DNA of 64,000 nt from Alphaproteobacteria bacterium. GTDB lineage: Bacteria; Pseudomonadota; Alphaproteobacteria; JAOXRX01. A program made the translations under genes and the position numbers. The stretch lies in the NCBI GenBank assembly GCA_025800285.1, contig JAOXRX010000097.1, positions 1 to 64,000 on the forward strand, in the 5' to 3' direction. This document shows, piece after piece, positions 6,532-10,037 of the stretch. How positions within the stretch are numbered: the first letter of the stretch is position 1; the number at the start of each line of letters is the position of its first letter. The notes below the pieces were generated by a model. The model had not been told where the DNA came from. It saw only the letters and a list, made by a program, of their open reading frames with translations, and did no database searches.

Positions 6532-7125
6532 ATGTTAAGAAAACCATTTAGAAAGATTATTAAAGGAGAGAGAATTATTCTCCGCAAATTAGACTGCTCA
6601 GAAGAACAAGCTAAGGTTTTATTCTCTAAAATTGAGAAAAACCGTCAACATTTGTTACCTTGGATACAATGGGTTCATTATAATAAAACATATAAAGATA
6701 ATTATAACTTTTTAAAGGGCAAAGAAGAAGATTGGGCAAATAAAACTGATGCTTTGTATGGAATCTATTTAAAAAAAGAGCTTATAGGAGTTATCGAATT
6801 AAGAAAAATAAATTATGTAAGAGATTCTGGTGAACTTGGATACTGGATAGACTCTGAATATGCTGGCAATGGTTATATGACAGAAGCAGTTAAAGTTATA
6901 GAAGACATCTTTTTTAACAGAGGCTTAAATAGAATGGTAATTAAAGCCGATGTAGATAATTATGCATCAATATCTGTTGCTGAAAAGAACGACTACACTT
7001 TCGAGGGGGTGTTAAGGCAGGCTTCATATTATATGGAAGGGGAAGGCGAGTTTAGAAATATAGCAGTTTACTCCAAACTATATTATGAATGGGAAGACAA
7101 TAGAGGTGATATATCTTATGAGTAA
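6532..7125 (+). CDS. RimJ/RimL-type GNAT N-acetyltransferase
   Basis: A 197-residue GNAT protein of the RimJ/RimL group. The order GERIILRKLD near 12, LYGIYLKKELIGVIELRKI near 83, the acetyl-CoA loop region GELGYWIDSEYAGNGYMTEA around 102-121 and the NYASISVAEKNDY element near 143 is the standard layout. Such enzymes acetylate protein N-termini or small amines; the substrate here is unknown, and a ribosomal protein or aminoglycoside-like target cannot be told apart. It overlaps the next gene by 8 bp (ATGAGTAA), so the two are co-translated. Confidence 0.85.
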   Translation: MLRKPFRKIIKGERIILRKLDCSEEQAKVLFSKIEKNRQHLLPWIQWVHYNKTYKDNYNFLKGKEEDWANKTDALYGIYLKKELIGVIELRKINYVRDSGELGYWIDSEYAGNGYMTEAVKVIEDIFFNRGLNRMVIKADVDNYASISVAEKNDYTFEGVLRQASYYMEGEGEFRNIAVYSKLYYEWEDNRGDISYE

Positions 7126-7423
7126 AAAATTTACTAGAGTCATTGAAGATTTTGAATGTGGAAATTGTGGAGCAACTGTAAAAGGTAATGGATATACAAA
7201 CCATTGTCCTAACTGTTTATACTCTAAGCATGTTGATATAAACCCAGGTGATAGAGCTTGCAACTGTCATGGATTAATGAAACCTACTTCTGTAGAGCAA
7301 ACTAGAGATGGATTCGTAATTATTCAAGAATGTCAAAAATGCGGACATATTCGCAGACAGAAATCATCTCCAGATGATAACTTTGAAACAATGCTAAAAA
7401 TAAACAAAAATAGAATAAAATAA
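7118..7423 (+). CDS. RNHCP-domain zinc-ribbon protein
   Basis: A 101-residue protein of the RNHCP domain family. It starts with MSKKFTRVIEDFECGNCG and contains CGNCG (15-19), then NHCPNCLYSKHVD, the family signature, then PGDR, CNCHG and a final CQKCGH. The eight cysteines and several histidines probably bind two zinc ions. The role of the family is unknown. I chose ATG 7118, because a ribosome binding site (AGAGGTGAT) precedes it and the longer frame would add residues unlike the family. It is coupled to the GNAT gene by overlap and ends just before the ilv leader. Confidence 0.82.
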   Translation: MSKKFTRVIEDFECGNCGATVKGNGYTNHCPNCLYSKHVDINPGDRACNCHGLMKPTSVEQTRDGFVIIQECQKCGHIRRQKSSPDDNFETMLKINKNRIK

Positions 7424-7465
7424 AATGTTGACTTTTCCATTTATTTATTTATAATGTTGTTTGTT

Positions 7466-7531
7466 ATGAGAAAAAAGAATGCAACAATTACAAATTTACT
7501 AGTCCTATTTAAGCAGAGCTTGTATAGGTAG
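7466..7531 (+). CDS. ilvL: ilv leader peptide (attenuator control peptide)
   Basis: A 21-residue frame begins ATG 7466 and stops TAG 7529. The peptide includes I-T-N-L-L-V-L-F, that is four Leu/Val codons and one Ile codon within eight codons, all three branched-chain amino acids. It sits 82 bp before ilvB and just upstream of a terminator and competing helix. This is the classical layout for ribosome-mediated attenuation: when charged Leu/Val/Ile tRNA is short, the ribosome stalls on these codons and the terminator is prevented. The annotation is inference from position, codon content and RNA structure. Confidence 0.72.
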   Translation: MRKKNATITNLLVLFKQSLYR

Positions 7532-7588
7532 TTTTTCTATTTTTCAAAAACAAAATGCAAGCGAGCCAATAAAAGAGCTCGTTTTTTT
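7518..7588 (+). promoter_or_regulatory. ilvBN transcription attenuator
   Basis: The terminator stem CGAGC (7562-7566) with GCTCG (7577-7581) is followed by seven T. An alternative helix pairs GCTTGTA (7518-7524) with TGCAAGC (7556-7562), one G-U pair, and shares the base of the terminator's 5' arm. A ribosome reaching the leader stop codon at 7529 would cover 7518-7524 and let the terminator form. A ribosome stalled at the Leu-Leu-Val-Leu codons (7496-7507) leaves it free to form the antiterminator. Confidence 0.7.
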
Positions 7589-7613: not shown

Positions 7614-9326
7614 ATGAACGGAGCAGAATTACTATTAAAAACACTTGAAGATTGTGGAGTAGATACTATATTTGGTTACCCTGGTGGTAGAGTTATAAAA
7701 ATATACGATGAATTATTTAAACAAAATAAAATCAAACACATTCTCCCAAGACATGAACAAGGTGCTGTGCATATGGCTCAAGGATATGCTAGAACTAGTG
7801 GTAAAGTTGGTTGTGTTTTAGTAACCTCTGGACCGGGATCAACAAATACTATAACAGGAATAAATGATGCTTATATAGATTCTACACCTCTTGTTTGCAT
7901 AACAGGGCAAGTAAGCAGGAACCTAATAGGTACTGATGCTTTCCAAGAAGCTGACACAGCAGGAATCACAAGATCTATCGCTAAACATAACTATTTAGTT
8001 ACTGATGTGAATGATTTAGAGCACATTATAAAAGAAGCTTTCCATTTAGCATCTACAGGAAGACCTGGACCTGTTTTAATTGATATACCATCTGACTTAC
8101 AAGTAGAAGAAGTTAATTATCAAAATATTGAATACTCTTCTAGAAAGTCTTATAAAACTAATAAAGAGCTAGATGCTATATCTAAAGCTCAAATCAAAGA
8201 AGCTATTGATTTGCTTAAGAGCTCTAAAAAGCCAGTAATATATGCTGGAGGAGGGGTTATTAACTCTGGCCCTAAAGCTTGTCAAGTTTTACAAGATTTC
8301 TCTAATACTTTAAATATTCCAACTACTCTTACTTTAATGGGATTAGGAGCTTATCCAGCAAGAGGTAAAAACTTCTTAGGAATGTTAGGTATGCATGGAA
8401 CATATGAAGCAAATATGGCTATGCATGAAGCAGATTTAATCTTAGCAATTGGATCAAGATTCTCGGATAGAATTACTGGTAAATTGGATAAATTTGCTCC
8501 TAATGCAAAAATTATACACATTGATATCGATCCAGTATCAATCAATAGAGTTGTTCCAGCATATCTAGGTATTGTAGGAGATGTTTATGAAACTCTTCAA
8601 CATATTATGGAAGAAATCAATATAAATGATTTTGACACTAACCGTAAAGATTGGTGGTCAAAAATTGAAGAGTTCAAAGCTAAAGATAGCCTGTATTATG
8701 ATAAAAAATCTGAAATTATAAAACCAGAATATGTTATAGAAAAAATATCTGATATAACTTATGAAAAAAATATAGATACAGTTGTTTCTACAGATGTTGG
8801 ACAACATCAAATGTGGACTGCTCAATACTTCAAAATAGACAAGCCAAACCACTGGTTAAGCTCTGGAGGTTTTGGAACTATGGGCTTTGGATTACCAGCT
8901 TGTATTGGAGGGGCATTTGCAAAACCAAATTCAGCAAACATATGCTTCACTAGTGAAGGTTCTTTCCAAATGAATATACAAGAAATAGCAACTGCTGTTA
9001 ACTATGGATTACCAATCAAAATTGTTCTTTTAAATAATTCTAGATTAGGGATGGTTAGACAATGGCAAGAACTTATGTTTGAAGAAAGATATTCAGAAAC
9101 TGAATTTGATACATCCACTCTACCTGATTTTCAAGCACTAGCTAAAGCATACCATGCTGATGGAGCTCTTATCTGCACAAAAGAAGAGCTAGAAGAGGGT
9201 ATTGAAAAAATGTTAAGCTCTGACAAGCCATTTATATTAGAAGTTATGGTAGATCCTGCTGAAAATGTATTACCAATGATTCCTCCAGGGAAAGGTCATA
9301 ATGAAATGATTATAAGAGAGAAATAA
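7614..9326 (+). CDS. ilvB: Acetolactate synthase large subunit
   Basis: A 570-residue thiamine-diphosphate enzyme that condenses two pyruvates to acetolactate, or pyruvate with 2-ketobutyrate, the first common step of branched-chain amino acid synthesis. It has the PYR domain with catalytic Glu48 (RHEQGAVHMAQGYAR), the GPGSTNTITG segment near 82, the central FAD-binding-like domain, and the ThDP motif region running from GSFQMNIQEI to NNSRLGMVRQWQ near 450-480. Length is typical. AAGGAAG precedes ATG 7614. The regulatory subunit ilvN follows after an unusual 219-bp spacer, and the operon is probably controlled by the leader-peptide attenuator. Confidence 0.95.
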   Translation: MNGAELLLKTLEDCGVDTIFGYPGGRVIKIYDELFKQNKIKHILPRHEQGAVHMAQGYARTSGKVGCVLVTSGPGSTNTITGINDAYIDSTPLVCITGQVSRNLIGTDAFQEADTAGITRSIAKHNYLVTDVNDLEHIIKEAFHLASTGRPGPVLIDIPSDLQVEEVNYQNIEYSSRKSYKTNKELDAISKAQIKEAIDLLKSSKKPVIYAGGGVINSGPKACQVLQDFSNTLNIPTTLTLMGLGAYPARGKNFLGMLGMHGTYEANMAMHEADLILAIGSRFSDRITGKLDKFAPNAKIIHIDIDPVSINRVVPAYLGIVGDVYETLQHIMEEININDFDTNRKDWWSKIEEFKAKDSLYYDKKSEIIKPEYVIEKISDITYEKNIDTVVSTDVGQHQMWTAQYFKIDKPNHWLSSGGFGTMGFGLPACIGGAFAKPNSANICFTSEGSFQMNIQEIATAVNYGLPIKIVLLNNSRLGMVRQWQELMFEERYSETEFDTSTLPDFQALAKAYHADGALICTKEELEEGIEKMLSSDKPFILEVMVDPAENVLPMIPPGKGHNEMIIREK

Positions 9327-9358
9327 GTTATTAAGTAATCTACGACCACTAGAATGTA

Positions 9359-9414
9359 TCGTAGGTGCGACTACTCGAAAGAGATTTGAACAAAAATAAA
9401 AGGAAAAAGATATG
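9359..9414 (+). repeat. 56-bp direct repeat, copy 1 (between ilvB and ilvN)
   Basis: Identical to 9493-9548 except one base (A/C). Each copy ends with an AAGGAAAAAGAT ribosome site and an ATG. In copy 1 the ATG at 9412 opens a 28-codon frame ending TAG 9496-9498; in copy 2 the ATG is the ilvN start. The copies are 134 bp apart. Confidence 0.85.
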
Positions 9415-9492
9415 GAGATGCAAATATATACACCAAGTTTTAAAAGGCTTTTTCATAAGATTTTTTCTTTTAGATTGAGAAAATCGAGTGTG

Positions 9493-9548
9493 TCGTAGGT
9501 GCGACTACTCGAACGAGATTTGAACAAAAATAAAAGGAAAAAGATATG
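9493..9548 (+). repeat. 56-bp direct repeat, copy 2 (carries the ilvN start)
   Basis: Second copy of the repeat; it contains the ilvN ribosome binding site and start codon, so duplication of the gene's own translation start, or insertion of a 134-bp unit, explains the wide ilvB-ilvN spacer. Confidence 0.85.
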
Positions 9549-10037
9549 AAAAAGAAGAATAATACAATATCTATTATTGTTGACAACGAACCAGGAGTTC
9601 TAAGCCGTGTAGTAGGTTTATTTTCAGCTCAAGGATATAACATAGATAGCTTAAATGTTGATACTGCTAATATTGAGGATACCTTGTCTAGGATAACTAT
9701 AACTACTGCTGTAACAGAAATTGAAGCTAAACAAATGATATCTAAAGTTGAAAAAATCATTCCTGTGCATTCAGCTAAAGAGCTACATGAAGAAAATGGA
9801 TTTTACTCTGAGCTTGCTTATATCAAAACAAAAGATACAGAAAATGCTCATAGTATAGCTGATAAGTATGATGCTATACAAATTGATAAAACAGATGGTC
9901 TAGTTATATTTAAATTAATAGATGATCATCACATAATATCTAAATTTGGAGAAGAATTAGAAACTGATTTTGTAGAGACTGCTCGTAGTGGTTTAGTTGC
10001 TATAGAGAAGGGTAATAATGCTTTAATCGCGGAATAG
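9546..10037 (+). CDS. ilvN: Acetolactate synthase small (regulatory) subunit
   Basis: A 163-residue regulatory subunit. The N-terminal ACT domain is clear: TISIIVDNEPGVLSRVVGL at 7-25, then GYNIDSLNVD and SRITITT; the C-terminal half matches the small-subunit domain. It binds valine and gives feedback inhibition while stimulating IlvB. Start ATG 9546 follows AAGGAAAAAGAT. It is separated from ilvB by 219 bp holding a 56-bp direct repeat, which is unusual because the pair is normally nearly contiguous. No terminator is seen between them, so cotranscription remains likely. Confidence 0.93.
   Translation: MKKKNNTISIIVDNEPGVLSRVVGLFSAQGYNIDSLNVDTANIEDTLSRITITTAVTEIEAKQMISKVEKIIPVHSAKELHEENGFYSELAYIKTKDTENAHSIADKYDAIQIDKTDGLVIFKLIDDHHIISKFGEELETDFVETARSGLVAIEKGNNALIAE

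What the first reader, a model, noticed from the sequence alone, without database searches (positions are those of the whole stretch)
7466..7588. Leader-peptide attenuator of ilvBN with Leu/Val/Ile codons
Seen: a 21-codon frame with I, L-L, V, L within eight codons, then a terminator (7562-7588) and a competing helix (7518-7524 with 7556-7562) that shares the terminator's base. The stop codon is placed so that a ribosome there would cover the antiterminator's 5' arm. Known: ilv operons in enterics and some others use this scheme; the sequence here is unrelated and very short, in an AT-rich alphaproteobacterium.
Basis: partly seen in the sequence, partly recalled or inferred. Interest (0 to 1): 0.7.

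Follow-up and report, generated by a model that had tools for sequence, protein, structure and literature searches.

The report
Leucine/valine-sensing switch before ilvB
Just before the gene for the first enzyme of branched-chain amino acid synthesis lies a tiny 21-codon reading frame followed by two competing RNA hairpins, which most likely switches the gene on only when leucine or valine runs short; this kind of switch is already known in related bacteria, so it is a divergent but ordinary example.

Summary
A near-consensus promoter (7428-7455) is followed by a 21-codon frame, MRKKNATITNLLVLFKQSLYR (7466-7531), an 8-bp antiterminator (7518-7525 with 7555-7562) and a terminator (7559-7588), then ilvB (7614) and ilvN. 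In the window it is the only short frame with four consecutive Ile/Leu/Val codons plus a terminator plus a 2:3 helix. Synonymous recoding matches its pairing about once in 5,000. No close relatives are held, so conservation within the lineage could not be tested. But 37 of 131 other ilvB loci, nearly all named or class-level Alphaproteobacteria, share the layout: Ile/Leu/Val run 7-9 codons before the stop, terminator 24-35 nt after it, ORF tail pairing with the strand beside the terminator. The window has 7 codons and 27 nt. Rhizobiales versions are Rfam 'sRNA' Atu_C8. Alphaproteobacterial ilvBN attenuation is published (Caulobacter 1994; comparative genomics 2004). Verdict: ordinary ribosome-mediated attenuator, a sequence-divergent new member of a known kind, probably with an almost leaderless leader ORF. 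Odd side-note: the 97%-complete genome seems to lack ilvC, ilvD, leuB and leuC.

The parts
7428..7455 (+). Promoter-like site TTGACT-16-TATAAT
   Evidence: 11 of 12 consensus matches; TTGAC promoters at similar distance precede the leader ORF in Rhizobiales relatives. Transcript start inferred, not measured.
7466..7531 (+). Leader ORF, 21 codons, MRKKNATITNLLVLFKQSLYR*
   Evidence: Translation; same run-to-stop distance as in alphaproteobacterial ilvB leaders. No Shine-Dalgarno; predicted near-leaderless.
7496..7507 (+). Control codons TTA CTA GTC CTA (Leu-Leu-Val-Leu)
   Evidence: Sequence; GTC is rare in this genome (2 per 1000 codons).
7504..7528 (+). 1:2 hairpin (7504-7514 with 7518-7528), 10 bp, -8.2 kcal/mol
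   Evidence: Fold; 2 of 5000 synonymous recodings as stable. Not a shared feature of relatives.
7518..7525 (+). Antiterminator 5' arm (region 2), GCTTGTAT
   Evidence: 8-bp helix with 7555-7562, -10.9 kcal/mol.
7555..7562 (+). Antiterminator 3' arm (region 3), ATGCAAGC; overlaps the terminator base by 4 nt
   Evidence: same placement as in Rhodobacterales leaders, where it overlaps by 2-4 nt.
7559..7588 (+). Intrinsic terminator (3:4 hairpin plus seven-U tract)
   Evidence: Fold -9.4 kcal/mol; terminator starts 27 nt after the leader stop.
7614..9326 (+). ilvB, acetolactate synthase large subunit (regulated gene)
   Evidence: TIGR00118 772 bits, cut-off 538; catalytic Glu and cofactor motif intact.
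9546..10037 (+). ilvN, acetolactate synthase small subunit (probably same operon)
   Evidence: TIGR00119 85 bits, cut-off 57.

Best explanation
A ribosome-mediated transcription attenuator of ilvBN. Transcription starts 2-5 nt before the AUG, and a ribosome begins the 21-codon frame on the new transcript. If charged tRNA-Leu or tRNA-Val is short, it stalls at codons 11-14 (7496-7507) and covers arm 1. Arm 2 (7518-7525) then pairs with 7555-7562, which takes away the base of the terminator, and polymerase goes on into ilvB. If the ribosome runs on to the stop codon (7529-7531), it covers arm 2 and the terminator 7559-7588 forms. With no ribosome, the 1:2 hairpin holds arm 2 and termination again prevails. 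Shown by sequence and computation: the arms, their energies, the geometry and its recurrence upstream of ilvB in relatives. Inferred: transcription start, translation of the frame, stalling, and the change in readthrough.
For: Four-arm architecture with the predicted fold in each ribosome state. Joint chance about 1 in 5000 or less. Only such element in the window. Layout shared by 37 of 131 other ilvB loci, with 0 in reverse-complement controls and 0-3 in shuffles. Arm 2 and arm 3 complementary in all 38, with 17 different arm-2 sequences. Rfam Atu_C8 covers the Rhizobiales versions, with the arm 2:arm 3 helix and terminator in its consensus. Published precedent: Caulobacter ilvBN attenuation (PMC4117421 citing Tarleton et al. 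1994) and an alphaproteobacterial ilvB leader peptide (PMC1273637 citing Vitreschak et al. 2004).
Against: No relative closer than class is held, so conservation within the lineage is untested. The I/L/V run is short (4) and total I/L/V content is not enriched. Antiterminator-terminator overlap is only 4 nt. The arm-2 recoding test has no power in GC-rich relatives (median p 0.47), and those relatives do not show the 1:2 hairpin. The RNA has no Rfam match, Atu_C8 included, and the peptide tail differs from the common GxRMGR ending. The rest of the pathway seems absent from the assembly.
Confidence: 0.9

Rival explanations
1. A plain intrinsic terminator of the upstream genes (GNAT acetyltransferase 6532-7125 and zinc-ribbon protein 7085-7423); the short frame and alternative helix are coincidence and ilvB has another promoter or reads through.
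For: The terminator does lie downstream of co-oriented genes, and AT-rich DNA yields many short frames (52 with an I/L/V run of at least 4 in the window).
Against: The best promoter in the region lies between those genes and the leader; only 25 nt separate the U-tract from the ilvB start; joint chance of 1:2 and 2:3 pairing about 1 in 5000; the same layout recurs upstream of ilvB.
Confidence: 0.06
2. A leader whose main product is a trans-acting small RNA or peptide (as rnTrpL/peTrpL in Sinorhizobium), with attenuation secondary.
For: The terminated leader would be a small near-leaderless mRNA like rnTrpL (PMC7298713); the Rhizobiales counterpart is listed in Rfam as sRNA Atu_C8.
Against: No target or conservation of the peptide can be shown here; the cis architecture is complete and sufficient.
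Confidence: 0.03
3. A ligand-binding riboswitch or T-box-like element controlling the terminator.
For: Structured leader with a terminator upstream of a biosynthetic gene.
Against: No Rfam family matches at gathering score, and nothing relevant even at E up to 10; the pairing arms lie inside a reading frame with Leu/Val codons.
Confidence: 0.01

Closest known systems
Alphaproteobacterial ilvBN attenuator (Caulobacter crescentus ilvBN, Tarleton et al. 1994; ilvB leader peptides of Vitreschak et al. 2004)
   Same: Short leader ORF with branched-chain codons, competing antiterminator and terminator upstream of ilvBN; in the loci found here the same 7-9 codon and 24-35 nt spacings.
   Different: Peptide ends FKQSLYR instead of the common GxRMGR; AT-rich; shorter control run; own 1:2 hairpin inside the frame.
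Rfam RF02502 Atu_C8 (Rhizobiales sRNA)
   Same: Lies directly upstream of ilvB, begins 2 nt inside the leader start codon, holds the arm 2:arm 3 helix followed by a terminator.
   Different: Window does not match the model; in Rhizobiales the helix ends 3-7 nt before the terminator instead of overlapping it.
Escherichia coli ilvB/ilvG and leu leaders (from general knowledge)
   Same: Ribosome stalling at Leu/Val/Ile codons chooses antiterminator over terminator.
   Different: Unrelated sequence, far fewer control codons.
Sinorhizobium meliloti rnTrpL/peTrpL
   Same: Alphaproteobacterial attenuator whose transcript starts at the leader AUG (PMC7298713).
   Different: Tryptophan operon; here leaderlessness is only predicted.

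Membership tests
Ribosome-mediated attenuator of ilvBN (alphaproteobacterial) | Short leader ORF directly upstream with a run of codons for the pathway's end products | tested here: met
   LLVL at codons 11-14; run-to-stop 7 codons against 7-9 in relatives
Ribosome-mediated attenuator of ilvBN (alphaproteobacterial) | Intrinsic terminator between leader ORF and first structural gene | tested here: met
   7559-7588, -9.4 kcal/mol
Ribosome-mediated attenuator of ilvBN (alphaproteobacterial) | Alternative antiterminator helix with its 5' arm in or near the ORF end and its 3' arm at the terminator's ascending strand | tested here: met
   7518-7525 with 7555-7562; overlap only 4 nt, similar to Rhodobacterales
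Ribosome-mediated attenuator of ilvBN (alphaproteobacterial) | Regulated genes are ilvB and ilvN | tested here: met
   TIGR00118 and TIGR00119 above cut-off
Ribosome-mediated attenuator of ilvBN (alphaproteobacterial) | Conservation of frame and pairing in close relatives | not testable with these tools
   Only genome held of its order; nearest IlvB 56% identical
Ribosome-mediated attenuator of ilvBN (alphaproteobacterial) | Starvation-dependent readthrough and translation of the leader | not testable with these tools
   Needs RNA and reporter experiments
Rfam RF02502 Atu_C8 | Match to the covariance model | tested here: not met
   No match at gathering score or at E up to 10; hits in six Rhizobiales loci serve as positive control

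The most novel reading that the evidence does not exclude
The attenuator is kept under selection in a genome-reduced bacterium that has lost ilvC, ilvD, leuB and leuC, so that a leucine/valine-sensing switch now governs acetolactate production for something other than its own branched-chain amino acid synthesis (for example exchange with a host or partner).
Probability: 0.12. Interest if true: 0.5.

Novelty: new member of a known kind. Interest (0 to 1): 0.25.

Why it matters
It extends ilvBN attenuation to an AT-rich, genome-reduced alphaproteobacterial lineage with no held relatives and shows that spacing and pairing logic persist where the RNA is no longer recognisable by sequence. It also indicates that the Rfam 'sRNA' Atu_C8 is the terminated ilvB leader of Rhizobiales. 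Neither changes the textbook picture.

Tried and rejected
Rfam at gathering score and at E up to 10: no meaningful match for the leader. Searching the order for relatives: only the own genome is held. Overall I/L/V enrichment as evidence: rejected, not significant. Synonymous recoding as a positive control in 37 relatives: no power in GC-rich genomes (median p 0.47), and their in-frame 1:2 hairpin is if anything weaker than expected, so the hairpin is not used as a shared trait. Swapping arms between loci: the window's region 3 pairs best with its own arm 2 among 38, but the window's arm 2 pairs as well or better with several GC-rich foreign regions, so the swap test is only half supportive. 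A leader upstream of leuA in the same genome: the 100-nt tyrS-leuA spacer has a terminator, but no convincing leader peptide. A covariance model of the relatives' leaders was not built.

Full report
What is there. The region upstream of ilvB was read directly. The frame 7466-7531 reads MRKKNATITNLLVLFKQSLYR*. A TTGACT-16-TATAAT promoter-like site lies at 7428-7455 and matches 11 of 12 consensus positions. No Shine-Dalgarno sequence is present. If that promoter is used, the transcript begins about 2-5 nt before the AUG. The longer in-frame start at 7454 would lie inside the -10 box, so 7466 is the better start. ilvB (7614-9326) and ilvN (9546-10037) pass the curated NCBIfam cut-offs TIGR00118 and TIGR00119. 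The catalytic glutamate and the cofactor motif of IlvB are as in relatives.

Folding. The full leader folds with a 1:2 hairpin (7504-7514 with 7518-7528, -8.2 kcal/mol alone) and the terminator (7559-7566 with 7577-7584, -9.4), the 'off' state. If everything up to 7517 is masked, as by a ribosome stalled at the Leu/Val codons, the RNA up to 7567 folds into the antiterminator 7518-7525 with 7555-7562 (-10.5; duplex -10.9). If everything up to 7531 is masked, as by a ribosome at the stop codon, only the terminator forms. The antiterminator and terminator share four nucleotides, so exclusion is partial. In the stalled-state fold of the complete leader the antiterminator coexists with a stem shortened to four main pairs and separated from the U-tract. 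Rhodobacterales leaders show a similar small overlap of 2-4 nt.

Chance. Total I/L/V content (6 of 21) is not enriched. A run of four has P about 0.04 at this genome's frequencies, and one of its codons, GTC, is rare at 2 per 1000. The RNA pairing is the stronger evidence. Among 5000 synonymous recodings of the same peptide, 2 reach the hairpin energy, 6 the 2:3 duplex energy and 1 both. Codon permutation and random coding give 0 of 5000 for both. The metrics were chosen after seeing the structure, so these figures are somewhat optimistic. Over the whole window, both strands, 52 short frames carry four or more consecutive I/L/V; two have a terminator within 110 nt and only this one also has a 2:3 helix.

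Relatives. The genome (1.1 Mb, 97% complete, 117 contigs) is the only one of its order held; the nearest IlvB is 56% identical. The direct test in close relatives could not be made. I therefore compared the upstream regions of 131 other ilvB loci from class-level genomes and GTDB contigs. Thirty-seven have an ATG frame with at least four consecutive I/L/V codons, 7-9 codons between run and stop, and a terminator starting 24-35 nt after the stop. The window has 7 codons and 27 nt. The same search gives 0 on the reverse complement and 0-3 on shuffled sequence. The named ones are nearly all Alphaproteobacteria. Typical peptides are MATLVVIVGKKRMGR (Rhodobacterales) and MKNSIVLIVVGKRMGRMV (Rhizobiales). 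In all, the codons after the run contain an arm (mostly GCGCATGGG; 17 distinct sequences among the 38) complementary to a stretch beside the terminator (mostly CCCATGCGC); the window uses GCTTGTAT and ATGCAAGC. The helix was searched for, so complementarity as such is partly built in; the constant placement with changing sequence is the informative part.

Controls that did not help. The recoding test applied to the 37 relatives has no power in GC-rich genomes (median p 0.47), and their in-frame hairpin is weak, so the 1:2 hairpin is a feature of the window and not of the group. In the arm-swap test the window's region 3 pairs best with its own arm 2 of 38, but its arm 2 pairs equally or better with several foreign GC-rich regions.

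What is known. Rfam RF02502 'Rhizobiales sRNA Atu_C8' matches six Rhizobiales leaders here and starts 2 nt inside the leader start codon; its consensus holds the same helix and a terminator. So this sRNA looks like the terminated ilvB leader, and a start at the AUG fits the 8-nt distance from the -10 box to the AUG in many Rhizobiales. The leader transcript of the Sinorhizobium trp attenuator also starts at its AUG (PMC7298713). Attenuation of Caulobacter ilvBN with tandem Ile and Val codons is described in PMC4117421, citing Tarleton et al. 1994. PMC1273637 refers to a previously described alphaproteobacterial ilvB leader peptide, citing Vitreschak et al. 2004. I have not read the 1994 and 2004 papers themselves. 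The window is not detected by Rfam, so membership rests on architecture, position and regulated genes, not on sequence similarity.

Physiology. In the same assembly leuA (TIGR00973) and a branched-chain-type aminotransferase gene are present, but no match was found for ilvD, ilvC (only a glycerol-3-phosphate-dehydrogenase-like hit), leuC/aconitase, leuB/isocitrate dehydrogenase, acetolactate decarboxylase, trpE or hisG. Several of these could be one missing cluster in a fragmented assembly, so I do not build on this. If true, the switch would control acetolactate production in an organism unable to finish the pathway.

Verdict.

Noticed in passing
window 9352-9414 and 9486-9548: A 63-nt direct repeat (95% identical, 134 nt apart) in the ilvB-ilvN spacer carries a small palindromic stretch (TCGTAGGTGCGACTACTCGA), a ribosome-binding site and an ATG; the first copy opens a short frame of about 28 codons (9412), the second is the start of ilvN.
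   Followed up: partly
whole genome G000 (contigs C59, C63, C97): ilvB, ilvN, leuA and a branched-chain-type aminotransferase are present but ilvC, ilvD, leuB, leuC/aconitase, trpE and hisG were not found in a 97%-complete assembly: either an odd truncated pathway or a missing cluster.
   Followed up: partly
L040:2814-2934, L049:2810-2933, L059:2787-2908: Rfam 'sRNA' Atu_C8 (RF02502) coincides with the ilvB leader of Rhizobiales from the leader start codon to the terminator, so it is probably the attenuated ilvB transcript and not an independent sRNA.
   Followed up: yes
L039-L083 (Rhizobiales loci): TTGAC promoters whose -10 box ends about 8 nt before the leader ATG suggest leaderless ilvB leader peptides in Rhizobiales, whereas many Rhodobacterales leaders have a Shine-Dalgarno sequence and a longer 5' end.
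   Followed up: partly
L134:2322-2423 (minus strand): A strong terminator (AAACGGTGGCT...AGCCACCGTTTTTTT) lies between tyrS and leuA in the 100-nt spacer, with a small ATG frame MIILYSHRFFIK in its loop and 3' arm; possibly a second control site.
   Followed up: no
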